DNA of 42,174 nt from Karstenula rhodostoma CBS 690.94 (Eukaryota; Ascomycota; Dothideomycetes; Pleosporales; Didymosphaeriaceae), in assembly GCA_010093485.1 (NCBI GenBank), contig MU001508.1, forward strand, positions 27,750 through 69,923. The letters run 5' to 3'. The notes below the pieces were generated by a model. It worked only from the letters and a program-made list of their open reading frames with translations. It was not told where the DNA came from and made no database searches. Positions within the stretch are counted from its first letter, which is position 1; every line of letters begins with the position of its first letter. Of this stretch, positions 1 to 31,796 are shown piece after piece. The translations under genes and the position numbers were made by a program.

Positions 1-1725
1 TTTTTTTTTTTTTTTTTTTTTTAATATAAAGCTACTATTATAACTATCTAGTAATAAGGAAAGATCTAGAGGTACTATATAGTTCTATTAAATAGCTCTA
101 AAGGATAGTACTATTTATAATAAGAGAGAAAAAAGGGCACCTATAGTACTAGGCTTAATTAACTAAGTATTAACCTACCTATATATATTATATAATATAG
201 CGATACTATAATACTATAACGCTATAATACTATATAATACTAGTAGGGTAGTATACTTCTTATTTACTAATATTTAACGCGTAATTATAGAGAAGTTACG
301 AAACGTTAAGGATATTATAAAATATTAATAATATTATAATTTAAAAAAGAATATAAAAGAGAGGTTACCTACTAGTAATAAGTAACTTATAGTACTATAT
401 ATAAAGACTAGCTCTTATAGAAAGAGACCTATACTATATCCTACTCTATTAAAATAGCTAATAATAGTAAGTAACTAATCCTTAATAATAAATATAACCT
501 AGTATATACTAGTAGTAAGTCTATTAGTAACCTAGATATATCTAACTATATATATTATAAGATTTAATATATTATCTAGTAAGTTAACTTCTATTAGTAT
601 AATAATTAATCTAGTATATAAATACTATAAGTTATAGCTATAGACTATATAATTATAGAGTCTATTAGTAAGTTTTTTATATATATATATACACGGTATT
701 ACTAATATAATATTACTAACCTAGACTATATAGGGATAATACTATAGTAGTTAACTAAGAATAAGGACTTTATATATAAGTAGTAAGAGATAATTATAAT
801 AATTCTTAAGGGCTAAAAGGAGCTAGACTTTATAGTAAAGATAATTATAATTAAGTTAAAGTAACCTATATAGTTAATAAATATAGAGTAGGTAATAGCT
901 ACCCTATAATAGTAGGTAAAGTAAGAAGTAATAGGTAATATTAATAGTAATAATAGGTAGGTAATAATAGGTAAGTAGTATTAATAGTAATAGTAATAGT
1001 AATAGGGTAATATACTAAGCTATAAGCTATAGGTAAAAATTAAAGATATTAGTAAGTATAAGTAAGTAAAAGAGTTAGTATTTAAATAACTATTAGTTAG
1101 TATTACGCTAATAATTAAAAAAGTATAAAAATATATAAAAAAAAGGTCTAAATTATATAAACGAAGGTCTAAAAGTAAGTAAATAAGTATTAAAGAAGAA
1201 TAAAAAGGTCTCTCTCTTATTATAAGTATACTATATAGTCCTATAGGCCTGGATTAGAATCTAGGCCGAATTAGTTATTTACTATTATTAATTATTTTAA
1301 TAAAGTAGGATATAGTATAGGTTTTTTTTTTTAAGAGCTAGCCTTTATATATAGTATTATAAGTTACTTACTACTAGTAAGTAACCTCTCTTTTATATTT
1401 TTTTTTTTTTTAAATTATAATATTATTAATATTTTATAATATCTTTAATATTTTATAACTTCTCTATAATTATATATTAGGTATTAGTAAATAAGGAGTA
1501 TACTATTCTACTAGTATTATATAGTATTATAGTATTATAGTATTATAGTATCGCTATATTATATAATATATATAGGTAGGTTAATACTTAGTTAATTAAG
1601 CCTAGTACTATAGGCGCCCTTTTTTCTTTCTTATTATAAATAGTACTATTCTTTAAAGCTATTTAATAGAATTATATAGTACCTTTAGATCTTTCCTTAT
1701 TACTAAATAATTATAATAGTAGCTT

Positions 1726-1762
<37 letters not shown>
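1..1762. repeat. RIP-degraded foldback element with ~480-base inverted repeats
   Basis: Bases 1-480 are repeated in reverse complement at about 1270-1762. The match runs from the poly-T at 1-22, paired with the poly-A at 1732-1762, inward to the sequence near 480/1270, with scattered C/T and G/A differences and small indels. The loop of about 790 bases (481-1269) has no open frame and is rich in TAATAG-type triplets. CpA and TpG are nearly absent, as expected after RIP. Long terminal inverted repeats suggest a dead DNA transposon or a palindromic duplication. No transposase can be read. The element may continue left of the window. Confidence 0.75.
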
Positions 1763-1765
<3 letters not shown>

Positions 1766-2916
1766 ACCTTATATAATAGTCTAGTAATTTTAATAGTAAT
1801 AGTTTCTAAATTTAGATTTATTATATATTTTAGTATAAGCCTAGTACCTAAGCTAATTATATTTATTTAATATTTTAGATTATATAGTAAAGATCTAAAT
1901 AGATTATATCCTTTTTTTTTAAAAAGAAGTTAGAAGAACTAAATAAGTTTCCTATAATATATAGACTTTTAATATAGTTTAATAGTTCTTATAATTATAA
2001 ATCTATATTCTAGATATTATTAATATTTTTATATTAGGCTAGTATAGAAATAAGACTATTTTTATTATAATTTTAATATTTTAATAGAGAACTAAATAGA
2101 CTAGAATTCTATAATATTAATACTAACTTATATTAATAGTATAATACTTTAATTACCTATAAAATTAAAGTATATATTTACTTTTACTAATTTTAGTTAA
2201 AAAATTATAAATAAGTAATTACTATAATAACTAAGTAATTACTTAGTTACTATTACTATTACTATTTACTAATTACTTAGTTACTATTTACTATTACTAT
2301 TTACTTAGGGTAAATTAATTACTTAGTTACTATTTACTTAGTTATATAATAATTACTTAGTTATTTATAACACTAAGCTTTATCTATCTCTAATAAGGTA
2401 CTATACTTAGAATTCTTCTATAGCTTCTTCTTAAACTAGACTTTTACTTAATAATCTAAAGCCTAGGCTTTCTTAATAACTTAGTTTTCTTTAGAATAAA
2501 AAGTAGTATAGTCTCTTTACTAAATTATATAGCTACTTATACTAAGTTTACCTTTATATATTAACTTGAAATTTATAAGATAGCCTTTCTTAGAACTAAC
2601 TTAATTATAGAGTATAAGGATTTAGCTAATTTTATTAGCTTTAGAGGCCTAATCTTATATAAATTAGTAATAGCTATAATAAAAGACTAGAATAAATACC
2701 TCTATTAGTATAAAGAACTTTTTATATATAAATCTATTAGAAATTAGGGTCTTAGGGAGTAAAGTTTTAGGTAATTTATACTTAATATACTCTATTATAT
2801 AGGAGTAGGAAAGAATAGTAATAAAGGTATATAATTATTTAAATATAGGTATAAATATTAGGTTAGCTAATTTTAGGTAGATTATTTATAGGTCTAGTAT
2901 AATATTTTAATAATAT

Positions 2917-3000
2917 AATACTTAGTAATTATATAATACTTAGTAATTATATAATACTTAGTAATTATATAAAACTTAGTAATTATATAATACTATATAA
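2917..3000. repeat. 18-base minisatellite
   Basis: The unit AATACTTAGTAATTATAT occurs four times in a row at 2917-2988; the fourth copy differs by one base. A partial fifth copy follows to 3000. It lies inside the RIP block and has no coding meaning. Confidence 0.85.
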
Positions 3001-3659
3001 ATATAACCTATATAAGAATAATAAACTTTTACCCTAATACTAATCTTTCTACTATAGTAAAAACTAAGTAAACTAGTATTTAAGCTTTTACTAATAGTAA
3101 AGTATCTAAGTTAAATCTTATAGATAAGGCTACCTATAAAGTACCTCCCCCTAAAAAGTCTAAAAAGAAGAACTACTATAAGCTAAGTAGTAAATTATTA
3201 TAATTTATTATTATAACTTTAAACTAATTATATATAGCTATTACTCTTTATTAGATTAAGTAATACTAGAAGTCTACTAAGCTTCTCTTTAAAAAGTTAC
3301 TATTCTTAAGACTTATATATAAAATTACTTATTATAATCTTAGCTATTTAAATTTCTAATTCTAATTAAATACTTTTAAGGCTTTATAAGAGTTTACTAA
3401 AACCTTTTTAGTTAGATATTTAAAAAGTATATAATTTAATTTCTAGTTTTTTACCTATTTTTACTAACTAGAATAGATTATAATATAAATATAATCTATA
3501 CTAAGTATATTACTATTTAAGTAAAGAACTCTTAGCTTATATAGTAGTATTATAATAAGTTCTAGTATATAGATTTTAGTATATAGATAGGGTTTTAGTT
3601 CTAGTTCTAGTTTCTAAATTCTAGTTCTAGTTTCTAGATTTTAGTTTTAGTTTTTAAGT

Positions 3660-4655
3660 TCTAGTTATAGTTTCTAGGTCTTAGTTATAATAAAAACTTT
3701 AGTTTTAAGATTTCTAGTAGATATAATTTAGATAGTATTTACTATACTTAAATAAGACTTAGTATCTATATTTATAATAATTATCTATAATAAACTATAT
3801 ATTTTTAACTTCTAAAAATATATTTTTTAAAATTCTAACTAACTAAAATATTTCTTATTCTATTCCTTACTATATTTTTTAATATAGAGTTTTATTTATA
3901 TTTATATTCTAAATTATAGGAATTTTATTTAGCTATAATAATTAGCTATAATAATTTTAGGATATATTTTAACTTAATAAGACCTACCTTAACCCTATTA
4001 TCTAAGACTTTACCCTAATCTAGAATTTATATAACTACTATCTAACCCCTATTTAAAAAAGTAATTAAAAATCTAAATAGAAGTTAGGTTAGGGTTAGAT
4101 ATACTTATATAAGACCTTAACCCTAACCTAACCCCTATCTATTTACTAGTCTAGTTCTAGTTATAGTTTCTAGATTTTAGACTTTTAGTTATAATAAAAG
4201 CTTTAGTTTTAAGGTTTCTAGTAGATATAATTTAGATAGTATTTATTATACTTAAATAAAACTTAGTATCTATATCTATAATAATTATTTATAATAAACT
4301 ATATATTTTTAACTTTTAAAAATATATCTTTTTAAATTTTAACTAACTAAAATATTCCTTATTCTATTCTTTACTATATTTCTTAATATAGAATTTTATT
4401 TATATTTATATTCTAAATAATAGGAATTTTATTTAGTTATAATAATTAGTTATAATAACTTTAAGATATATTTTAGCTTAATAAGACCTACTCTAATCCT
4501 ATTACTTAAAAACCCTACCCTAATTTAGGGTCTATATAACCCCTACCTAACCCCTATCTAAAAAAGTAACTAAAAATCTAGATAGAGATTAGGTTAGGGT
4601 TAAGTATACTTATATAAGACTCTAACTCTAATTTAATTTCTATCTATTTACTACG
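3660..4655 (+). repeat. Tandem pair of ~500-base direct repeats with CCCTAA-like hairpins
   Basis: Copy 1 (about 3660-4150) and copy 2 (about 4155-4655) match along their whole length, mostly with C/T and A/G differences. Near the 3' end of copy 1, TTAGGTTAGGGTTA (4084-4097) is followed about 20 bases later by TTAACCCTAACCTAACC (4118-4134), a clean inverted repeat of telomere-like units. Copy 2 keeps a decayed version at about 4587-4640. It may be a subtelomeric or transposon-borne repeat; no protein is readable. Confidence 0.7.
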
Positions 4656-5214
4656 CTATTCTTATTATTAGTATTATTTTCTATTATACTATTTTTTACT
4701 AATATTCTATTATAGGCCTTTATATTTATAATATAATTACTCTAATTAAGTTATATAACTAATAACTATACTATAGTAACTATACTATAAAAATTATATA
4801 TATAATCTATTATATCCTTTTAGTTAAATTCTAATAATTACTAAATACTTTATATAGAAAATAGTTATTATATTTTCTATTATTCTCTCTAACTAACTAA
4901 AAGTTTATTAGCTATAAGTTCTCCTATTACTAAATCTATATAACCCTTTTTTAAATAGTTATTAGCCTATAGAATCTAGATATATCTTATTAATATATAT
5001 TATAAAATATTTTTACCTTACTAGTATATATAGGTAGCTAGTATAGTCCTATATATACTTATATATAATTATATATACTAGGTATTTTAAGTATACTAAC
5101 TAGTTCTATATTTTTATAAATATATATATATAAGAATATATATAGATATACTATAATATTACTTTAGATATCTAAAGTATCTAAGATACTTAGATAGTCT
5201 TTATATATACTTAG

Positions 5215-6745
5215 TAAGTAGCTTAGTAAGTAAAAAATATTCTTTACTTAAAGTTTTAAAGCTTTAAAAGTTCTACTATTATATAATAGTATAATAGGTT
5301 ATATATACTAGTAATATATATAGAAATTCTATCTTAACCTAAAATATAAAATTTTATTATATTAAAAATATAAAAAATTTATTTTTATAATATATTTAAA
5401 GAACTAGAATAGGTAAAAACTATATTATAAAAAGTTTTTTAGGAGAGCTATATAGATATATATATTTATATATATTTATACCTATACTATCTAGAGTATA
5501 TAGGTGTATATAGGTATATATAGGTATATATAGATATATATAGATATATATAAGTATACTAGATTTATATAAAATCTTTATAAAAGAGAATATTTTTATT
5601 CTTTAATAATATTTATAATATTAAAGTTATAATTATAATTTTTTAATAGGTTTATAGAGAAACTCTTATATAATTTTATTAATAGAAAATATTATATTTT
5701 TTATTATATAATTATCTAATAAAATAAGAAATAGCCTATTTAGGGCTAGTTTAAATATATATTATATAATATTTTATTATTAATATAATCTATATATATT
5801 ATATAATTATATTTTTAAATAAAATTCTTAAACTATTCTATAATAATAGAGTTATTAATAAAGTAAATAAAGAAACTAGTTTTCTATACTAAATTACTAG
5901 TTTTTACTTAATTTAATTCTTTAAATATATTATAAAACTATATTTTTTATATTTTTAATATAATAAAATCTATTATTTTAGGTTAAGGTAAGATTTCTAT
6001 AGATATTACTAGTATAACTAACCTATTATATTATTATATAGTAGTAAGACTTTTAAAGCTTTAAATTTATAATTATTTTTTTTACTTACTAAGCTACTTA
6101 CTAATATATTATTAATTTATATAAATATATATAGGCTATAGATATATATATATATATATATATAAAAATATAGGGCTGGCTAGTATATACTAGGCGCCTA
6201 GGGCACTTAATCGTGCGCGAGTGTGTATAGGACTGCGCTAGCCACCTATACGCACTAGTAAGGTGAAAACGTTTTATAATATAGTAGCTTAGTAAAAAAC
6301 TAGTTTATTTTAAATATTAATTAATAACTCTATAACTAGTAGACTTTTTAATAATATTATTTAAAAATATAATTATATAATACTAATAGTATATAACTAT
6401 AATATAATATTATATAATATATATTTAAATTAGTAATAAGTAAAATTTTCTTTATATTATTAAGTAATTATATAATATAAAATAGACTTTTTTAAATAAA
6501 TAAAATTATATAAGGATTTCTTTATAAATCTATTAAAAAATTATAATTATAGCTTTAATATTAAGAAAGTTATTAAAGAATAAAGAAATTCTCTTTTATA
6601 GAGATTTTATATAAATCTAGTATACCTATATATACCTATATACACCTGTATATACCTGTGTATACCTGTACACTCTAGATAGTATATGTATAAATGTGTA
6701 TAAATATATATATCTATATAGCTCTCCTAAAAAACTTTTCGTGAT
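5215..6745. repeat. Nested inverted repeats, arms of ~225 and ~450 bases
   Basis: Segment A (about 5215-5440) is repeated in reverse complement at about 5885-6115. The adjacent segment B (about 5440-5885) is repeated in reverse complement at about 6295-6745. The order is therefore A, B, A', spacer, B', which is not a simple palindrome. Divergence is RIP-like. The last B' bases, GCTCTCCTAAAAAACTTTT, end at the border with unique DNA. This may be a decayed element rearranged or inserted into itself. Confidence 0.65.
6170..6262. other. GC-containing island inside the RIP block
   Basis: About 90 bases with ordinary GC content sit between arms A' and B' of the nested inverted repeat. They include CpG-rich stretches such as AATCGTGCGCGAGTG and two short palindromes, CTAGTATATACTAG and CTAGGCGCCTAG. 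GGCTAG near 6177 pairs with CTAGCC near 6240. The island is unmutated, so it was probably single-copy or arrived after RIP. Confidence 0.5.
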
Positions 6746-6777: not shown

Positions 6778-8093
6778 TTATTCTTGGTTAGTAGTAAAAG
6801 ACTTATATATAATAATCTCGTCTCTTCCAGGCGCAGGCTCATGGCTTACACTAGGGTCCATCTCGGCTCTCGCGCTGCCCGAGTTATTATTCAACCTAAC
6901 CCAATCTCGCCTCGAATCCTCGAGGTCGCTCTTGTCGGCCCTCTTGGCAGAGTTGTTGGTCCCTCTAGAACCCCCACTGCCCAGGCTCCTGAGAGAGATG
7001 GCGGAGCGCACACTCGCGACAATCGACTCGGCGGTGCGACTGCTGATGACTGGGCGGAGGGTTGGTAGGCATGCGGCAATGACGGACATGCAGGGCTCCA
7101 CACGCGACCAGATGAGAACATTTGCGACGACGGCTGCGAGTTTTGAGTGAAGGGCGCATATATCAACGAGAGAAGTGAGCTTACGGCCAAATGCATCGGC
7201 ATGCTTGCTGATGTCCTCGTAGAGGAATCTGTGGAAGTAGTAGATCCGCACGGCTTCGGCCACTGCACAGCTGTACACGAATTAGCCTCATAAGCTGGTA
7301 CCTGGTAGTGTCATTTACATACAAGGCACCAAGCCAGAAGATTGCGATCAAAGCAATTTTACGACGGATCTCCATTTGGAGGGTAGTGATAGCAGGAATG
7401 GGTAAGCACAGAATGGCAATGTCGAGCACGAGATCGAGCGAAGCATGAGTGACCAGGAAGGCCTGAAAATCAATCTTCTTAGCCGCAGGGTCCGGTCTGA
7501 GGGACCAGTGAGTTGATATTGGATAATAGCTGAACAGCAAAGCCTGCATCAGTCAGCACATATTGCGCATGGCAGGAAACTTACAAAGATTGATCCCGTG
7601 AACCACGCGAGTGTCACGCAGATCATGATATTGGCCGCCAGGAAGAAGCCCTTCGTGGCAAAGACGCGCTTGTAGAACAACAAGATGCTGACTTTAACAA
7701 TGGCCAGAGCCGTAAAGCACAGGAAAGAGTCGCCATAGACAATCTGCGTCGCCATCAGTCACAATGAGCAAACACGGAACGGCGCACTCTACCTTCAACA
7801 GTACGACAGCCTTTTGCGGACCCAGGGCTTGTTGTGGCTTGCCAATGACGCCTTTGGCAACCCCAACAATGGTATTAATGCCCAGTCCAAAGCAGAACAC
7901 CTGCGAATGTCAGTTCCCCGCCCACGAACAGCATCAGATGTGGCCATGGTACCTGAGCGCAGACGATAACCCAGTCGTCAGCCTTCGGTGAAGATCGCAG
8001 CCTGCGGGCCCAAAATCGCAGCAGCACAGCCAGTAGAGAGAGAAGAGGGAAAATGATGCTGACGCTCAGCAAACCAACGGCCGTGGAATTCAT
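6778..8093 (-). CDS. Fungal rhodopsin-domain (SAT4/PTH11-like) 7TM protein
   Basis: Six exons: 8093-7953, 7900-7793, 7743-7585, 7543-7323, 7270-7185 and 7133-6778. They join in phase to give 356 residues. The protein has several hydrophobic segments, including residues 6-26 and others through exons 3-5. Family hallmarks are an early Arg-rich loop ending in KADDWVIV, the region near VTHASLDLVLDIAILCLP, and SRVEPCMSVIAACLPTLRPV before a polar cytoplasmic tail of about 90 residues. Proteins of this fungal rhodopsin/PTH11-like family sit in the plasma membrane; some act as receptors for surface cues, but most are uncharacterised. The fourth intron uses GTATGT, chosen because it restores FWLGAF-CAVAEAVRI. 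The gene is divergent from the UstY gene at 8607. Its stop lies only 33 bases from the RIP block. Membership in the neighbouring cluster is inferred from position. Confidence 0.82.
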
Positions 8094-8606: not shown

Positions 8607-9392
8607 ATGTTGCGACTGTGGCAGAAGCACCGCTACGCGCTCCTCCAGACCGCCGTCGATGTTGAACCCAAACGAGCGTCGCGGTCGAAAACGGCACTAG
8701 CAGTCTTGGGCTTCCTTGTCTGGACATGGCTGGTGGGATTCGCTAGCTTCAGGGCGGGCCGCTCTGCCACCACGGAACCGGGAGTACTGCAACAGGCCTT
8801 GGAACGTGAGTTGCACCAATCGAACCCAATCGAACCCCATCATTGTCATAGAGAATGCCTGACATTAGAGGCGCTGTTACAGTGGCATCCGTATACAGGA
8901 CATTCACCTACAACCGCACCTATTCTGAAGCGCCATCCAAAGCAACCACCGATCCAGCGTGGGCAGCCCTATTCCCCTTGGGCGGAACGTTCTTCACGCA
9001 CCCCAAAATCGCGCGTAATGTATCCACCTTCTCTGTCTACCACCAGCTGCACTGTATAGTACGACTAAGTACCTCCATCGCTTTCTGAAGGTGCTAACAG
9101 GCTGTAGGATGCGATCCGCCAAGGCTACTGGGCCGTCGTCGAAGCAGCCGCCCAGGGCAGGACGCCCTCGGATGCAGACACGCCGGCCATGGGGACGCTC
9201 CCACACATCCGGCACTGTCTGGACTTACTGCGCCAGAGCATCATGTGCCATGGAGACACAACGCTTGAGGTTGTGGACCCGCGGGTGAAGGGGGTGCATG
9301 GGTTTGGCGTCAAGCATCGCTGTCGAGATTGGGGGCAGTTGGTGCATTGGACGGAGCAGTGGAATGACATACCACCGGAAGAAGATGCCTAG
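8607..9392 (+). CDS. UstY-family oxidase (DUF3328), copy 1
   Basis: Three exons (8607-8805, 8883-9058, 9108-9392) give 219 residues. A single transmembrane segment near residues 29-48 follows a basic N-terminus, so the enzyme is probably a type II membrane protein. Both family signatures are present: YHQLHC (H120, H123, C124) and HIRHC (H158, H161, C162), the second followed by LDLLRQSIMCHGD. The C-terminus ends in the usual Cys/Trp-rich tail (HRCRDWGQLVHW). UstYa/UstYb proteins catalyse oxidative cyclisation of fungal ribosomal peptides, for example in ustiloxin, phomopsin and asperipin biosynthesis. Other family members act in non-peptide pathways. Exon 1 ends at a GTGAGT donor in phase 1, and the acceptor at 8881-8882 was chosen to preserve the reading into ASVYRTFTYN. 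The gene converges on the second UstY gene with 45 bases between stops. Confidence 0.9.
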
Positions 9393-9437
9393 AATTCTAT
9401 ATCGTACCTGGACAGTACAGATGGAAACTACATCGCA

Positions 9438-10341
9438 TTATGATGCCTCCGTTGACAAAGGAGTTTTCAATGCACTCATTTCGTCAGAACTGACCACTCG
9501 CCCTTGCATTGACACCATCATTGCATCCCAGTCCACGCATTCGTGCAGCGTCTTGGTGCCGTCCACCGTGGGCTTTGAACCCTTCTCCCAAAAGAACGTG
9601 ACGAGTGATGATATGTCCGGATGGCACATGAAAACAGCTCTCATGCGGTCCAAGCAATGATCTATATTGCATGAGTACAATCACTACAAACAATGGCGAA
9701 GGCGATCAACCTACCCGTATGGCTTTCCAAATCTGCAGCTCTGCTCTCCGTGATGTTGGGGTAGTAATGCTCCTTATATTTCCACTGCCGCAGCAACTTC
9801 TGCGTTATCGTGAGCATTACCTTGATACAGTCCGCAGCTGAGACCTACCACGCAATGTAGCTCGTGGAATACACCGAGCCATGCTAGATAGCCTCCACTG
9901 GGCAAGCTTACGGAGCTCCGGTTATTCCTCTGCAGTTCTTGCTGCGTAACGCGAATATCGATGTTTGCCAAGAGTTGCTGCCACGCTTCGTCGACGAGGT
10001 GATGCGACGACCCTGCGAACCTGCTACTCACGTACAAATTCCGCGCTTCTGGATCGTGCTGCACTTTAAGATTATCGATTGCTACTGGGGTCAGAGAGTA
10101 TGGCGTAGAAATATATGGGGAATGGAACTCTACCTTTTAGAGGAGGACACGCCTTCCTGGAATCCGAGCGAATCACTACGATACTCACTGTTGTGTAGGC
10201 TGTGATAAGGAGTATATGAAATAGAACGATAGAGAAGGTTCTTTTCCTCGATCGCTTTTCGGCTTTTCTCGTAGCGTGTTGGGCGCAATGGTTCGAAACG
10301 TCTTTGCACGTGGCCAGAAAAGGCTGGCTTTCTGTTTCCAT
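9438..10341 (-). CDS. UstY-family oxidase (DUF3328), copy 2
   Basis: Four exons (10341-10134, 10084-9849, 9799-9715, 9661-9438) give 250 residues. Residues about 36-57 form one membrane anchor after a basic stretch (RKAEKRSRKR). The first signature is HELHC (H143, H146, C147). The second, HTDHC (H175, H178, C179), is split by the third intron and restored exactly by a GTAGGT donor and TATAG acceptor; it is followed by LDRMRAVFMCHPD. The tail has HECVDW. The usual D-x-A-W motif appears as VDEAW (residues 100-104). In-frame ATGs also exist at 10362 and 10389; I chose 10341 because it leaves a short cytosolic N-terminus. Two different UstY proteins beside a tyrosinase match the dikaritin arrangement, where the pair work together on the core peptide. 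Confidence 0.88.
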
Positions 10342-10569
10342 GGTGGAGACTGGGGAAAGCATAAGCCAGGTATATGGGGACTTCGGCATTTTATGCGCTA
10401 GAGCATCATCCCTCGTCTCCAACCCATTTCCCGTTAGTAAAAGTGGACCCGCTGGGTGTATGACGAACTGAGGTGTCCCGATAGTCTATTGGATCTGAGA
10501 CACCAGGAAACAGCGCATAATTATCAGAATTCAGCATTGCGAGGTATTGTCTAATTTGATTCATTACAC

Positions 10570-11793
10570 TCAGTAAACATAGCACAGAACTTCCGCTTCC
10601 GTACTCAGAATCTGCTCAACCGCAACTCCTGGCGCCAAATCCCCAAAATCGAGCACTCTGCTCAATCCATCCTCTTCTCTGCCGCCAGCCTCTTTCTTCC
10701 CTGAAAGCTTCCTCACGCGATTCTCCGGATCCGCTGCCTGCCACATCCACCACAGCCGATCTAGCTGCCCATGGTGCAAAAAGAACACCGGATCTGCGCC
10801 TCAATCAGCAAACTCCTTTACAGCCATTTCACGCATACAGACCGTACGGCGCCGTGACTTCATAAAAGTCCCCCCTGACCAGCGCGGGGATAGCATTGTG
10901 CCCTTTGAACTCCAACCGCGTGTAAAAGCCCTCGAAACTCGTTTCGTCGAGCACCTTCTGCACGGCATTGGGGCTGATCAGGTGGCGGATGGGGCGCACT
11001 TCTTCTAGGTTGGTGAGGAAGCCGCGCGAGAGGCAGTGCTTGTGCGCGGTGCCGCCGTAGTACAGCGCTGAGAGGTGCGCAAAAGGGCCTGACGTCACGC
11101 AGTGCCCGTAAGCGACGGATTTGGTGGCGCTAGTGTTGCCGTTGCCGCCGAAGCCGTACGTGCTGTCCCATATCGGTGCTTGAGTTAGGTCTTCCCAGTC
11201 CAGCGCCCAGTCCCAGTATCTGTGGAATGCATCAGTGCTTTAGCTTCCAACCGACCATCACCGCGGATGCACATACGTAGCGTGGCCGGTGTACTGGCAT
11301 TTCTCCTTCAACATGATCTCGTAGAGGTGTAGGAAGTGTCGGTGCCAGAGGAGGAAGTCCGTTGTCCCATGAGCTACATTTTGAAGTCAGTATGCGAAAC
11401 GAAGAGGAAGCCATACGTACAGTAATTTCCTATCCTGCTATGGATGTAGGGAAAATCGTCGTACAAACTGTGGTTCATGCCGATTACAGATGGCTGAGTC
11501 CGCAAACATTGAACCGCGTCGAGATAGTGGATCTGCTCAGTCTTTGTCAAGGCTCTCCACTCGCGACGAGTGACTGGCGATGCGCATGACGACGATGTGC
11601 TTCCGCCTTGCGAGCCAGCATATCTCCATGACACTACACCTGTAAGGCATAATAAAATGAGGGTGAGGAAACCCGCGACAGTTCGCTGGTGAACTTGGGT
11701 CCTTTGTTGAATCCTGGAAGTAACAAAATCGGACCTGCTGTCACCTTTTGAGCCGGGTATCAACGTGTACCCGGTAGTTGACGTCTGTTCCAT
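10570..11793 (-). CDS. Membrane-anchored tyrosinase-like copper oxidase
   Basis: Four exons (11793-11421, 11373-11277, 11219-10843, 10793-10570) give 356 residues. A transmembrane anchor lies near residues 39-57. The CuA site reads YIH (H118), SHG (H126) and WHRHF (H135). The CuB site has GHN (H264) and DPVFFLHHGQLDRLWWMWQ (H289). The position four residues after H264, His in classical tyrosinases, is Pro268. YWDWALDWED is also typical. Tyrosinases oxidise phenols; in ustiloxin and phomopsin clusters (UstQ type) one modifies the Tyr of the core peptide. The first join uses GTACGT and ATGTAG, giving NYSHGTTDFLLWHR. The last intron (10842-10794) has a weak GTCTGT donor, chosen because it gives APYDPVFF. 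The gene is codirectional with UstY copy 2 and divergent from the precursor gene. Confidence 0.87.
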
Positions 11794-12837
11794 CTCTTTG
11801 CATCATACCCACTCGACACGACTTTGGCTGTCAATGGAAAATATCAGATTCTCAGTACCGGATCATGAATGGGCTCGCTAGTCCAGCATCCGCGCTGCTG
11901 ACATCAATGATACTGTGCTAGTACGAACGATAGTCAGCCATGCCGAGACCTGGCATTGGGGGCGCTCATCGATTGAAGAGTTTCGGAGTCCGAAAATAAA
12001 GGCAGCTGCTGCATTTTGATGAGTTCCGATGGCGGCGCTTAATCATTGGCATGTTGGCATGATGCAGTAACCGCTTTTGTCAGGTCATATGTGCGTACGC
12101 GGGGTAAAGCTAACGCCGGCTGATTGCAGCAGTTATACTACTCATCCATGTATGCCTACATAGTATATAGAGGTCACACAGGCCCTTGTCCTGTTATGCA
12201 GCGGAGTGGCGTATCCGGGTGAAAGCCATTGTCGATCTGTCGATCATGTCCACGATGCGGACCGCTGTGCATGACGTCCGCACAATGTCCCTGATTCGGA
12301 CATAAGCAAGCAAACGGCCCTCGGAAAAAGCTCGTAAGGTTCGATATGCCTAGACATGGTCTTTTTGTTGAATCTTACTGGCCAGGTTTCGGGAGTGTAT
12401 ATTGCCAGATGCTCCAACGTGCAGTATTACCGGCAGTCTCGCGGTCCTTGATAAGGGAATGGCCACGGGCAACATGTGCCAAAGGATCAGATACCTTGCA
12501 AGCATTCATATCGACGACTATTCTAGCCTTTGATGGTTAATAAAGGGACTCCATGATGCAATGTTGCCTGGCAGTACTGGAGCTGATCCACACCTGAGCT
12601 TGCTTCCGATGTCCGACCGAATGATAGCCCCCAAGTAGCCTGTATACTCGACGTCAGATTGTGGGGGGGGGGGGGGGGACTAATTAAACGGGCAGGAGTT
12701 GTATCTGAAGTCGAGCAATTAGGAACCGAAATCTTCCTACTCAAGAACAAGCAATTCCCTTAACTTTAGCTTCGGCCACCACACTAAGACATCACTCTCA
12801 AGAAACCCAATCACTTACTTCTTTTTCCGTCGCAAGA
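11794..12837. promoter_or_regulatory. Divergent promoter region between tyrosinase and precursor genes
   Basis: About 1.04 kb with no supported gene. A 64-codon open frame at 12346-12540 has no recognisable features and I do not call it. The region carries several TCCGA/TCGGA words, among them the palindrome listed separately, and a run of 16 G at 12663-12678 about 160 bases before the precursor start. Confidence 0.45.
11982..11994. promoter_or_regulatory. 13-base palindrome TTCGGAGTCCGAA, possible regulator site
   Basis: A perfect palindrome with CGG and CCG triplets facing each other across three bases (CGG-AGT-CCG). Zn2Cys6 transcription factors of fungal gene clusters bind paired CGG/CCG triplets, so this may be a cluster control site. 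No such regulator gene is in the window. Function is inferred from sequence form and position only. Confidence 0.3.
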
Positions 12838-13121
12838 ATGAAATTCTTTGCTCTCTTTGCTGTAAGCCTTTTTACGGCTGCATTGGCTGCTCCACTAGGT
12901 GCGTATTTCTCTCCACTCCCATAGCTCCTCGCGAGATACGATATTAACCTATTATTTTAGGATTTCAAAAACGCACGGAAAATATGGGCAAGTATCTAAT
13001 GGGCTTGAAAAGACATAAAAGAGGCTTGCTAACTCGTGTAGTGGTGCGTGACGAAGTGGCAGACACTGCAGACGACCAAGTTGTCTACACCGCCTACCCA
13101 CCAAATGTCGATGAGAAATAG
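12838..13121 (+). CDS. Secreted small peptide precursor with Kex2 sites, candidate RiPP precursor
   Basis: Two exons (12838-12898, 12961-13121) join in phase 1 across a 62-base intron with GTGCGT donor, TTAAC branch-like sequence and TTTTAG acceptor. The product is 73 residues. Residues 1-18 form a clear signal peptide (MKFFALFAVSLFTAALAA). Dibasic KR sites stand at 24-25, 37-38 and 40-41. They would release an 11-residue peptide (26-36) holding Tyr32, and a 32-residue acidic C-terminal part holding Tyr63 and Tyr66 before PP. Dikaritin precursors share this plan: signal peptide, Kex2 sites and Tyr-containing cores, though most have repeated cores and this has none. It sits between the divergent tyrosinase and the convergent methyltransferase. 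I cannot say which segment is the core. Alternatives are an unmodified secreted peptide or small effector. Confidence 0.7.
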
Positions 13122-13335
13122 GTTGACATGAATGACTCAGTCAGTTCATGAAGGGTGATGGGTGGCGAAATGTTCAGCTATTCATGGACCATTCTGGGAC
13201 TTGTGGTGGCGAGATTGAGAACGTGACTTAGTTTCTCGGCCGAGGAGTGTGTTCAATAGCTCATTCTCCAAATGATTAATTCTTGTTTGGCTCTTCAGGT
13301 CGAGTAAATGCTTCGGCGGATTCCACTTCATTTCG

Positions 13336-14701
13336 TCAGAACATGTCATCTCCCTCCCAGGTTGCGCATATGATGGACAGGTTTGCCTTGAGCGGTTTTT
13401 GAATCTCTTGCAGCTTGAACCGGGCATCGACAGTACGAAACAAGAGCGACCAGTCATCAGGGTCACGCTCTTTCGCATTCTGAATACCCTTCATTCCGAG
13501 GTCAAACGTGCTATGGCCATGAGTCAGAAGTAGAATGAAGAAAAGAGCAGGCCACTTACCGAGCTGATCGCTCCTTGTATGGAGACAGCATACCGGGCGG
13601 TGGCATACATAGTTCAGATACCAATACTCGAGCTCCCTTCTTGAGAGCAGGTACCAAGTTTTGCAGGATCTGAGCGGCGTACTTGTCTGACCAGTCGTGC
13701 AGAACCCACCGAAGATAATAGATGTCCGCGCCTTTTACCGGCTGCTCTTGGAAAAAGTCGTGTGGCATGAAGCGTAGCCTATTCCCGTGGCGTAGGTCCT
13801 CCGGAACTTCTGCGCCGTCAATAACATCGGGCAAGTCCTGAATGATGCAGCTGATGTGGGGCAGCAGCCGCGCAATTTCGGCACCAATGGTGCCTCGTCC
13901 ACCCCCAACATCGACCAACAGACCCTTGGCGGCGTCGCCCCAGTCAAAGCTGTCTACGACGTGGTGCATGCTGTAGGCAGGCCCAGAGTGCATGAAGCTC
14001 ATCGCGCCAGCCATTCGCTTTGCTCGCTCGGGGTCCCGACTCACGACGTCAAACATGGGCGTATCTGTTCCATATGCAATAGCGAAGCCAGCTTGGTTGG
14101 GTTCCTCAGACCCAGGCCATTTTTGCATCGCATCCGAAACCCGCGAAGCCGAGGGCCACATTTCATTTCCAAGAAATCCAATGCACTGGGCGAGGGGTGG
14201 TATCTCAGCAAGAACTTTGGACGCAGCCGTGTGCGCCACCACGCCCGGCGAAGGCTCGGTGAAAATGTAGTTGGTCATGGCATGGCGCAGAATACGGCGC
14301 GTGTCTGACAATGGAAGCGAGCAGACTTGTGCAATGTCCTCAAAAGTCGCAGTCTCCCCTGGCGGAAACGCCTTCGCGATTCCGAATCGTTCAATAACTT
14401 GGGTACTCGTCCATGAATTGAACTGCGCATGTGAGCTTGAATCTGGTATGAAAGCTGGAATACAAACTCGATCTTTGCCTATAAGCGAGCCTGCAGGTCC
14501 TAGCAGAAGAGCTGTGAGCTCATCCGAGGCTTCGAGAACAGCGTCTTGTGATGCTTGGATTTCGGGTGGCAATGTAACCCGTGCAGGATAGGAAACATCA
14601 AAAGACGGCGCAGGAAGATCATGGCTCGATAGATACGAGTCGAGTTTGGTAGTATGTTCCTGGATAATACCAGCCAGTTCAACAATTCTGCTAGAAGACA
14701 T
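13336..14701 (-). CDS. COMT-type SAM-dependent O-methyltransferase
   Basis: Two exons (14701-13560, 13510-13336) join in phase 2 through a GTAAGT donor to give 438 residues. The N-terminal half is the dimerisation region of class II O-methyltransferases. The SAM site is LLVDVGGGRGTIGAEI (GGG at 266-268), followed by QDLPDVI. The catalytic region is LRWVLHDWSD with His335 as probable base. The C-terminal exon carries ICATWEGDD near the end. Fungal members methylate hydroxyls of aromatic secondary metabolites. Placement 214 bases from the convergent precursor gene suggests it modifies that peptide's phenol or another product of the same cluster; this is inferred. Known ustiloxin-type clusters also include a methyltransferase, but I cannot claim it is the same type. 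Confidence 0.88.
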
Positions 14702-30380: not shown

Positions 30381-30836
30381 CTAAGAAGTCCCCGTGTAAT
30401 ATCCCTCGCTGCTGACCAAGTCCTCACTCACCTCCTCCCCAACCTTAACCGTAACATTGAAGTTCGTCACACTCGGCCCCGCACTCGCTCCATACAAGCT
30501 AAACAGACTCGCCGACAGCACGACCTCCTTGCCGCTCCACTCTTTGAGCCCCGCGGGCGCAGTCGTCGAGATGGTCACGTTGTCGAGTTGGTTGGACTTG
30601 TTTGGGCCGAGGTACTCGGAGGACGGGTAGGCGCCGAGGCTGAAGGGGTATCCTGGGGCCGGCTGGTAGCCCCATGCGATGGAGATGTCGGCGACGGATT
30701 GGATGTAGTTCTCGGTGACGAGGGTGAGGTTGAAGGGTTGTGAAAGCGTGAGGGTGGAGGGGGCGGCGATGCCGGTTAGGCGCGCGGTTGTGAGGGTTGC
30801 GCTGGCGAGGGTGGTGAGGAGGGTGGTGGTGCGCAT
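30381..30836 (-). CDS. NIS1-family secreted protein (candidate effector)
   Basis: Single exon, 151 residues, with a signal peptide at about 1-18. The mature part has the marks of the NIS1 family: TGIAAPSTLTLSQPFNLTLV, YIQSVADISIAWG, GYPFSLGAY, YLGPNKSN and SLYGASAGPSVTNFNVTV. There are few cysteines. NIS1 proteins are widespread secreted effectors of plant-associated fungi; Colletotrichum members suppress immune signalling by binding receptor-like kinases. Non-pathogens also have them, so virulence cannot be inferred. The 5' leader at about 30840-30930 is strongly CCA/CAC-rich on the coding strand. The gene is convergent with the S28 peptidase, 126 bases between stops. Confidence 0.82.
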   Translation of the reverse strand: MRTTTLLTTLASATLTTARLTGIAAPSTLTLSQPFNLTLVTENYIQSVADISIAWGYQPAPGYPFSLGAYPSSEYLGPNKSNQLDNVTISTTAPAGLKEWSGKEVVLSASLFSLYGASAGPSVTNFNVTVKVGEEVSEDLVSSEGYYTGTS

Positions 30837-31796
30837 TTTGGCGGGTTTGAACGGGGTTGGAATTGGTGGTGGTGTTGGTTGGTGGTTTGCTTTGAGTGTT
30901 TGGTTGTGGATGTGGATGTGGATGGTGGTGTAGATGCAATGCTCTTATAGCATTCAAGTTGCACGCTTGCGGATTGAGGAGACGATGAGTACATAGTGGA
31001 GGCTGAATATGCCATTTGGACACAGACCTGCTGTGGCACCGCGTTGCAATATTGTGTGATGCTGATCGGTGCAGGGTTGGTGTGGAGAAGGGCCGTGAGG
31101 AAATGTTCCGAGGCTGCCGCCAGCCTCACCCGGGCTAGCTACGTCAGTGCGGATAGCATCGCAACTGGAGATGTCGGAATCTGAAGGACCTCATAAACAG
31201 CTTGTTCAATAATTGAGCATTCTTTTGGTACTCTGTGGCTCTGTTCAACAATTTTCTGCGTTTCGAAGAGGTTCGTGCACTTGCTTGGACCCTGCCAACC
31301 CGGAAAAATGACGGTCGCCTAGCTACTAGCTACCATGCGCCACGTATGGCTGAGATGAATGCTTGACCAACTGACGTTGTCTCCACCGACGAGGGAAGCC
31401 CATGCGACAAGGAGGCAATACAATCGGCAGCAATAGGCCGGCGTGGGGCTATTTTCGGCTTAGCGGGTCACTCTACATACGTGTACGACATTGCTAACGA
31501 AAATAAGGGAGAATAACAGGATTGCGTTAATGGCTTTTGTGAATGGAGCTGCATGGAAGAGAAGTGTGAGATCTACATTGTATTATTACGCTAAACATTG
31601 GATGCATACATTATTGAAACATCATCTTGTACGAAACAGGCCTAGAGGTCCTACCTGATTGCTGGTGATTCCTCCCCCTGTCTTGAAATATTGCTATCAC
31701 AACTACCATCCCTATATTCGAATTCGAGATTCTAGTCAGGAATGTGCTCTTAGGAGAAGACAGCCTGAAAAAGAAGGAGGCTCTGCCAACGTGACA
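30837..31796. other. Intergenic, no gene seen
   Basis: 960 bases between the NIS1-like start and the 6PGDH stop. It includes the likely NIS1 promoter. Short open frames have no recognisable features. Confidence 0.4.

What the first reader, a model, noticed from the sequence alone, without database searches (positions are those of the whole stretch)
8607..14701. Candidate new dikaritin-type RiPP cluster: two UstY, tyrosinase, precursor, O-methyltransferase
Two UstY proteins with both HxxHC motifs, a membrane tyrosinase, a COMT-type methyltransferase and a secreted precursor with Kex2 sites sit within 6.1 kb. UstYa/UstYb plus tyrosinase with a Kex2-processed precursor is the known core of ustiloxin, phomopsin and asperipin pathways. 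This set is unusually small: no P450, flavin monooxygenase, transporter or dedicated peptidase is seen. The product cannot be read from sequence.
Basis: partly seen in the sequence, partly recalled or inferred. Interest (0 to 1): 0.88.

Follow-up and report, generated by a model that had tools for sequence, protein, structure and literature searches.

The report
Compact fungal copper-oxidase peptide gene cluster
A fungus carries a small, real gene cluster that probably turns a short secreted peptide into a cross-linked, methylated natural product, similar to known fungal peptide toxins but with a single, unrepeated peptide core.

Summary
Window 8607-14701 encodes, after splicing, two UstYa-family (DUF3328) proteins each with two HxxHC motifs, a membrane-anchored tyrosinase, a 73-aa secreted peptide with Kex2 sites, and a Methyltransf_2 O-methyltransferase. 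The genome is most likely Karstenula rhodostoma (Pleosporales). The oxidase core is conserved: Hymenoscyphus fraxineus has the tyrosinase and both UstY genes at tags 1778, 1780 and 1781; Polyplosphaeria fusca and Bisporella have tyrosinase and a UstY on contigs of identical length. In its own genome this is the only place found with UstY and tyrosinase within 30 kb.

The precursor is the weak link. It has no relative found and one unrepeated Tyr segment (TENMGKYLMGL). A secreted peptide with KR sites turns up about once per 30 kb in control loci anyway. Better support: it has the same 61-nt signal exon and phase-1 intron as a two-repeat Kex2 precursor beside another UstY gene of this genome.

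It works like a dikaritin (UstY/UstQ) RiPP pathway, but the repeated-precursor hallmark is not met. Lichen 'Clan R1' clusters already show two UstY, tyrosinase and OMT, so this is a new member of a known kind. Side finding: the tyrosinase has Pro where type-3 copper proteins have the second CuB histidine.

The parts
8607..9392 (+). UstY-1 (UstYa/DUF3328), 219 aa; exons 8607-8805, 8883-9058, 9108-9392; HQLHC and HIRHC
   Evidence: Splice models; PF11807 87.8 bits; identical from residues ASVYR to the end to P0121, K. rhodostoma P171DRAFT_368535
9438..10341 (-). UstY-2 (UstYa/DUF3328), 250 aa; exons 10341-10134, 10084-9849, 9799-9715, 9661-9438; HELHC and HTDHC
   Evidence: Splice model; PF11807 119.8 bits; relatives at 52% in Hymenoscyphus and 66% in Bisporella
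10570..11793 (-). UstQ-like membrane-anchored tyrosinase, 356 aa; exons 11793-11421, 11373-11277, 11219-10843, 10793-10570 (third intron has a GTCTGT donor; a second acceptor would add two residues)
   Evidence: PF00264 116.6 bits; 85% identical over full length to P. fusca P0001, also 356 aa
12838..13121 (+). Candidate precursor, 73 aa; exons 12838-12898 (61 nt, signal peptide) and 12961-13121; QKR|TENMGKYLMGLKR|HKR|GLLTR...; predicted core region TENMGKYLMGL
   Evidence: only ORF of its kind in the 33.3-kb GC block by two heuristic scans; single copy in genome
13336..14701 (-). COMT-type O-methyltransferase, 438 aa; exons 14701-13560, 13510-13336
   Evidence: PF00891 105.2 bits; membership in the pathway by position only
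1..6500 (.). AT-rich, RIP-degraded block that closes the cluster on the left
   Evidence: GC 0.165-0.199 in 2-kb steps to 6 kb; TpA/ApT 1.3-1.8 and (CpA+TpG)/(ApC+GpT) 0-0.14

Best explanation
A compact RiPP pathway that works like the ustiloxin/phomopsin (dikaritin) core. The 73-aa precursor enters the ER, is cut by Kex2 after KR, and the membrane-anchored UstY pair with the tyrosinase oxidatively cross-links the Tyr of the single core segment (TENMGKYLMGL; its Y-L-M-G recalls Y-A/V-I-G of ustiloxin). The O-methyltransferase then caps a phenol or hydroxyl. Shown: gene structures, families, motifs, conserved linkage of the oxidase genes. Inferred: that this peptide is the substrate, the cross-link, the methylation site and that the OMT belongs.
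For: Families and intact motifs. Linkage kept in other genomes: H. fraxineus tags 00001778 (tyrosinase), 00001780 (UstY-2), 00001781 (UstY-1) on a contig of 2,231,685 nt; P. fusca tyrosinase and UstY-2 both on a contig of 98,317 nt; Bisporella both on 1,546,927 nt (same contig inferred from identical length). Tyrosinases of Karstenula, Polyplosphaeria, Kalmusia, Hymenoscyphus and Bisporella group together (90/86; 97/94 with one metagenome row). Only UstY-tyrosinase pair within 30 kb among about 43 UstY and 13 tyrosinase places in the genome (places merged by me, counts are lower bounds). The peptide is the only secreted ORF of at most 120 aa with two KR sites in the 33.3-kb GC block and shares a 61-nt phase-1 signal exon with a two-repeat Kex2 precursor near another UstY gene (L030). 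UstQ/UstYa/UstYb make the cyclic core of ustiloxin (PMC6514808, passages); DUF3328 CctR is a binuclear copper enzyme (PMC12435403, text part 1 of 3).
Against: No repeated core, the hallmark of dikaritin precursors (PMC9632046, passages). No relative of the peptide found in a search of 5.8 billion proteins, although small genes are often unannotated. KR-bearing secreted ORFs occur about once per 30 kb in control loci. Signal exons are only 11 of 20 identical to L030, and signal peptides resemble one another anyway. Of two other repeat precursors in this genome, L001 shows no intron at that place and L002 has its intron at nt 65 rather than 61. Linkage of OMT and peptide to the oxidases in relatives was not tested. 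No expression data.
Confidence: 0.62

Rival explanations
1. The oxidase genes form a real cluster, but the 73-aa peptide is an unrelated small secreted protein (for example an effector or pheromone-like peptide) at the edge of an AT-rich region. The true substrate is another ribosomal peptide elsewhere or a non-ribosomal or polyketide molecule.
For: No repeats; no relatives found; single copy; KR-bearing secreted ORFs are not rare; small secreted genes often lie beside AT-rich blocks (general knowledge). UstY proteins also act in NRPS and polyketide pathways (PMC12048977 section 17).
Against: No Kex2 precursor with three or more similar units was found in the window or in the readable part of the 27.7 kb to its left (that scan does not flag two-unit precursors), and no other short secreted KR-bearing ORF in the GC block. 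No NRPS or PKS among the 18 sequences scanned. The peptide gene lies between tyrosinase and OMT and has the intron structure of a UstY-linked precursor.
Confidence: 0.23
2. A decaying dikaritin cluster: the precursor once had several repeats and has shrunk to one unit near a RIP-degraded scaffold end; the product may no longer be made.
For: The block left of the cluster is heavily RIP-degraded; a two-repeat precursor exists elsewhere in the genome (L030), so low copy numbers occur.
Against: All five spliced reading frames are intact; RIP indices over the cluster are not raised; the enzymes are close to those of P. fusca: tyrosinase 85%, UstY-2 108 of 126 compared residues.
Confidence: 0.1
3. 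The OMT is only a neighbour and the pathway consists of the two UstY proteins, tyrosinase and the peptide (compatible with the best explanation apart from methylation).
For: No relative was tested for OMT linkage; it is placed by proximity only.
Against: Its 3' end is 214 bp from the 3' end of the peptide gene, the next gene found to the right is a GH76 enzyme, and lichen Clan R1 clusters carry a conserved OMT (PMC12048977 section 11).
Confidence: 0.25

Closest known systems
Lichen RiPP Clan R1 (Parmeliaceae; PMC12048977)
   Same: Two UstY genes, tyrosinase and O-methyltransferase; secreted KR-bearing genes seen in some lichen RiPP clusters without repeats; no P450 or flavin monooxygenase
   Different: OMT between the two signature genes and a conserved FGE-sulfatase there, a further SAM methyltransferase; lichen tyrosinases (Letharia, Usnea) fall in another clade of the tree
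Ustiloxin cluster (UstA/UstQ/UstYa/UstYb)
   Same: UstY pair plus tyrosinase, Kex2-cut secreted precursor with a Tyr core
   Different: No 16-fold repeat; UstM, UstF1/F2, UstD and P450 counterparts not seen in the sequences scanned; OMT instead
Phomopsin cluster (PhomA/PhomQ/PhomM)
   Same: Tyrosinase and UstY proteins, secreted KR precursor
   Different: Eight repeats in PhomA; N-methyltransferase, S41 peptidases and zinc-finger regulator, not seen here in the sequences scanned
Asperipin-2a cluster (AprA/AprY/AprT/AprR)
   Same: Very small UstY-based cluster
   Different: One UstY, no tyrosinase among its four genes, a reductase and a transporter present, repeated precursor

Membership tests
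Dikaritins (UstY-dependent fungal RiPPs) | UstYa/DUF3328 protein with two HxxHC motifs next to the precursor gene | tested here: met
   Two, both motifs in each
Dikaritins (UstY-dependent fungal RiPPs) | Precursor with ER signal peptide and Kex2 sites around a Tyr-containing segment | tested here: met
   MKFFALFAVSLFTAALAAPL signal exon, KR-TENMGKYLMGL-KR; home-made signal heuristic, not SignalP
Dikaritins (UstY-dependent fungal RiPPs) | Multiple tandem repeats of the core (hallmark in PMC9632046 and PMC7329392, passages) | tested here: not met
   One unit only; no precursor with three or more units elsewhere in the window
Dikaritins (UstY-dependent fungal RiPPs) | Tyrosinase of UstQ/PhomQ kind (present in ustiloxin and phomopsin, not in all) | tested here: inconclusive
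   PF00264 and relatives auto-named ustQ (P0105, P0059); the characterised UstQ and PhomQ were not recognisable among the 120 listed hits
Dikaritins (UstY-dependent fungal RiPPs) | Oxidatively cross-linked Tyr peptide product | not testable with these tools
   Needs mass spectrometry
KEP (Kex2-processed repeat proteins, PMC7329392) | At least three tandem repeats of 8 or more residues between Kex2 sites | tested here: not met
   definition
Clan R1-like clusters | Two UstY, tyrosinase and OMT in one cluster | tested here: met
Clan R1-like clusters | Orthology to the lichen genes | tested here: inconclusive
   UstY-2 is 56% identical to Letharia lupina P0126, but tyrosinases lie in different clades; Clan R1 sequences themselves were not identified
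Type-3 copper tyrosinase | Six histidine copper ligands | tested here: not met
   Pro268 aligns with the second CuB His of hemocyanins; 7 of 7 paralogues with a readable CuB stretch have His

The most novel reading that the evidence does not exclude
A distinct branch of UstY pathways, shared by Dothideomycetes and Leotiomycetes, that uses a single-core, non-repeated precursor and an O-methyltransferase, and whose 'tyrosinase' is an atypical five-histidine copper oxidase acting with binuclear-copper UstY proteins. Genome mining that demands repeats would miss such precursors, which would explain why some UstY clusters, including lichen Clan R1, appear to have no precursor.
Probability: 0.3. Interest if true: 0.62.

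Novelty: new member of a known kind. Interest (0 to 1): 0.42.

Why it matters
Precursor searches usually ask for repeats (three or more in PMC7329392), and the lichen survey found no repeated precursor in its two conserved UstY clans. A concrete, testable single-core candidate with a same-genome structural parallel offers a way to find the missing ones. The widespread loss of a copper-ligand histidine in the partner tyrosinase is a direct, checkable hint about how the cross-linking chemistry differs from ordinary tyrosinase.

Tried and rejected
Protein search with the 73-aa peptide gave no hit at E up to 1. Solved-structure search with UstY-2 gave none. One search repeated the tyrosinase search for P0001 with a very strict cut-off and gave none. 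Rfam (gathering threshold) and ARAGORN (bacterial code) found nothing in the window. No structure was predicted, and no scan of viral or bacterial contig collections was made, as fungal genes were not expected there.

Idea that this is the direct orthologue of lichen Clan R1: not supported by the tyrosinase tree, though the gene set matches. Idea that a conventional repeat precursor hides elsewhere in the window: none with three or more similar units (single open stretches of 60 codons or more; the rule did not flag the two-unit precursor of L030, which searches found by the signal-peptide rule instead). Idea that the S28 peptidase at 28.7 kb belongs: rejected because GH76 and Pex2 genes and a large gene at 18-20.7 kb (no Pfam family for the ORF tested) lie between.

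The first precursor model was wrong by two bases and corrected. The first paralogue scan for copper ligands gave no rows and was redone with a looser pattern: 10 rows, one of them the cluster's own locus in a wrong frame, 6 with the CuB histidines readable, 3 not readable. The closest paralogue, L034 (35%), was not among those rows; I first read it on the wrong strand, then on the right one: it has His (HGSGH). So 7 of 7 readable.

Control limits: the 44 control loci are UstY and tyrosinase places and some overlap (L037/L042 give the same peptide twice), so they are not a random sample; I could not get random stretches. One search used these plus L056 and L057.

Full report
What is there. The window has a GC-normal block (about 6.5-40 kb) between AT-rich blocks with RIP-like dinucleotide indices. 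Everything before scaffold position 34 kb is AT-rich or N (window = C17:27750-69923 of G000). UstY-1 is identical, from residues ASVYR to its end, to protein P0121, listed as Karstenula rhodostoma CBS 690.94 P171DRAFT_368535 on a contig of 1,506,074 nt, which is also the length of C17. I infer the organism from that; it belongs to Didymosphaeriaceae, Pleosporales.

Gene models (lengths checked). UstY-1 on +, 8607-9392, three exons, 219 aa. UstY-2 on -, 10341-9438, four exons, 250 aa. Tyrosinase on -, 11793-10570, four exons, 356 aa; its P. fusca relative P0001 is also 356 aa. Peptide on +, 12838-13121, two exons, 73 aa. O-methyltransferase on -, 14701-13336, two exons, 438 aa. Pfam scores are far above cut-offs for four of five, none for the peptide. 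Both HxxHC motifs are present in each UstY. These are models without transcript support.

Is the cluster conserved? Of the 32 UstY relatives (from 3 genomes) lie on contigs whose length equals that of a contig holding one of the 120 listed tyrosinase relatives (196 found, 120 listed): P. fusca (98,317 nt), Bisporella sp. (1,546,927 nt) and H. fraxineus (2,231,685 nt, two UstY). The other 28 of 32 have no such match; one of them is the window's own UstY-1 entry. In H. fraxineus the locus tags are 00001778 (tyrosinase), 00001780 (like UstY-2, 52%) and 00001781 (like UstY-1, 53%). The tyrosinase is 85% identical to P. fusca over its full length; the next listed hit is 55%. For UstY-2, P. fusca's partial model matches in 49 of 52 and 59 of 74 residues; a JGI metagenome protein on a contig of 8,348 nt matches in 65 of 69 and 78 of 79. 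In a tree of the query and 42 of the 120 listed relatives, Karstenula joins Polyplosphaeria (100/100), then Kalmusia (89/90), then Hymenoscyphus plus Bisporella (90/86); the root is for drawing only.

In its own genome there are 59 exon-level UstY matches, which I merge to about 43 places, and 22 tyrosinase matches, about 13 places. Only C17 has both within 30 kb; the next nearest pair (C4) is about 34 kb apart. Both searches give lower bounds, and the tyrosinase search used this one protein as query.

The peptide. A heuristic scan for secreted ORFs (0 or 1 intron) in the window's GC block found 5 starts; 2 have at least two [KR]R sites, of which one is this gene and the other a 181-aa reading inside the rhodopsin-type gene. 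In 149,928 bases of 44 control loci the rule gives 15 starts and 5 ORFs of at most 120 aa with two sites, 4 of them distinct, so by itself the find is unremarkable. Two of those sit at UstY loci with real repeat precursors (L030; L002, where the scan read a wrong frame of a repeat gene). A narrower rule, signal exon of 55-70 nt, intron, KR soon after and at least two KR sites, gives 3 places in 164,128 control bases (L002, L030, and L034, which looks spurious) and 1 in the window. L030 (C14) encodes MKFSALALLSVATLAAAAPI | NDKRTEAEVQAYARGDGAPLGFKINKRDAEAQAYTRVDGSPLGFKINKREE with exon 1 of 61 nt, phase 1; the window gene encodes MKFFALFAVSLFTAALAAPL | GFQKRTENMGKYLMGLKRHKRGLLTRVVVRDEVADTADDQVVYTAYPPNVDEK with exon 1 of 61 nt, phase 1. 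The signal exons agree in 11 of 20 residues. Against this, the repeat precursor at L001 reads through that place without an intron and L002 has its intron at nt 65. This is support, not proof. The peptide has one copy in the genome and no relative was found.

Mechanism. From the literature, UstQ, UstYa and UstYb are together needed for the first cyclic intermediate of ustiloxin, and PhomQ for phomopsin (PMC6514808, passages). CctR shows DUF3328 proteins to be membrane-anchored, binuclear-copper, oxygen-dependent dimers with the HxxHC pair as metal site (PMC12435403, first of three text parts). I therefore expect Kex2 cutting at KR and oxidative cross-linking of the Tyr in TENMGKYLMGL by the three copper enzymes. 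The similarity of YLMG to YAIG/YVIG was noticed after the fact; no statistical weight is put on it. The OMT is assigned by position and by analogy with lichen clusters, whose authors state that OMTs had never been reported in dikaritin clusters (PMC12048977: abstract, section 11, and section 17 part 1).

The tyrosinase copper site. Aligned with hemocyanins, the second CuB histidine position is Pro268 (H-N-A-I-P against H-N-A-I-H). Among 121 aligned sequences (query plus 120 listed relatives) this column is Pro 97, Ser 13, His 9, Arg 2. The other ligand columns: H118, H126 and H135 are His in 121 of 121, H264 in 120 of 121, H290 in 110 of 121 with 9 gaps. His218-Cys219 is nearly invariant too (120 and 121 of 121) and could offer a substitute ligand; that is a guess. 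Seven of seven own-genome paralogues with a readable CuB stretch have His there. I could not fetch UstQ or PhomQ themselves to see if they share it.

Verdict. Observation confirmed; interpretation as a dikaritin-like RiPP cluster likely, with the precursor unproven and the repeat hallmark not met. The gene content is already described from lichens, so it is a new member of a known kind with some interesting deviations. Literature searches bearing on this: (open PMC papers only). I saw titles and abstract beginnings of the listings and opened five papers in part (PMC12048977, PMC7329392, PMC9632046, PMC12435403, PMC6514808); no title or abstract beginning named this cluster, but the 16 papers that mention Karstenula rhodostoma were not opened.

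Noticed in passing
window 10570-11793, residue Pro268 of the tyrosinase: Second CuB copper-ligand histidine is replaced by Pro; Pro in 97, Ser in 13, His in 9, Arg in 2 of 121 aligned sequences, with a nearly invariant HC pair (218-219) between the copper sites; 7 of 7 readable paralogues in the genome have His.
   Followed up: partly
L030:2965 (C14 of G000), L001 from about 400 (C18), L002 minus strand near 860 (C5): Three other UstY loci of this genome carry repeat-type Kex2 precursors (two-repeat QAY...GFKINKR; WYDITYVD repeats; SDGALQVDS..ASSYAQ repeats).
   Followed up: partly
window 12663-12678: Run of 16 G in the 1-kb region between tyrosinase and peptide genes; could be a sequencing artefact or an unusual promoter element.
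   Followed up: no
window 7181-7552, minus strand (gene may reach further): Fungal rhodopsin-type (PF20684) membrane protein fragment, the only other gene noticed between the AT-rich block and the cluster.
   Followed up: partly
window 30381-30944: Nis1-family protein (PF19271, 126.6 bits); from memory, a family named after a plant-interaction effector.
   Followed up: no
JGI protein P0122 (contig 8,348 nt): A metagenome contig encodes a UstY-2 matching in 65 of 69 and 78 of 79 residues, so a near-identical cluster may be partly present there.
   Followed up: no
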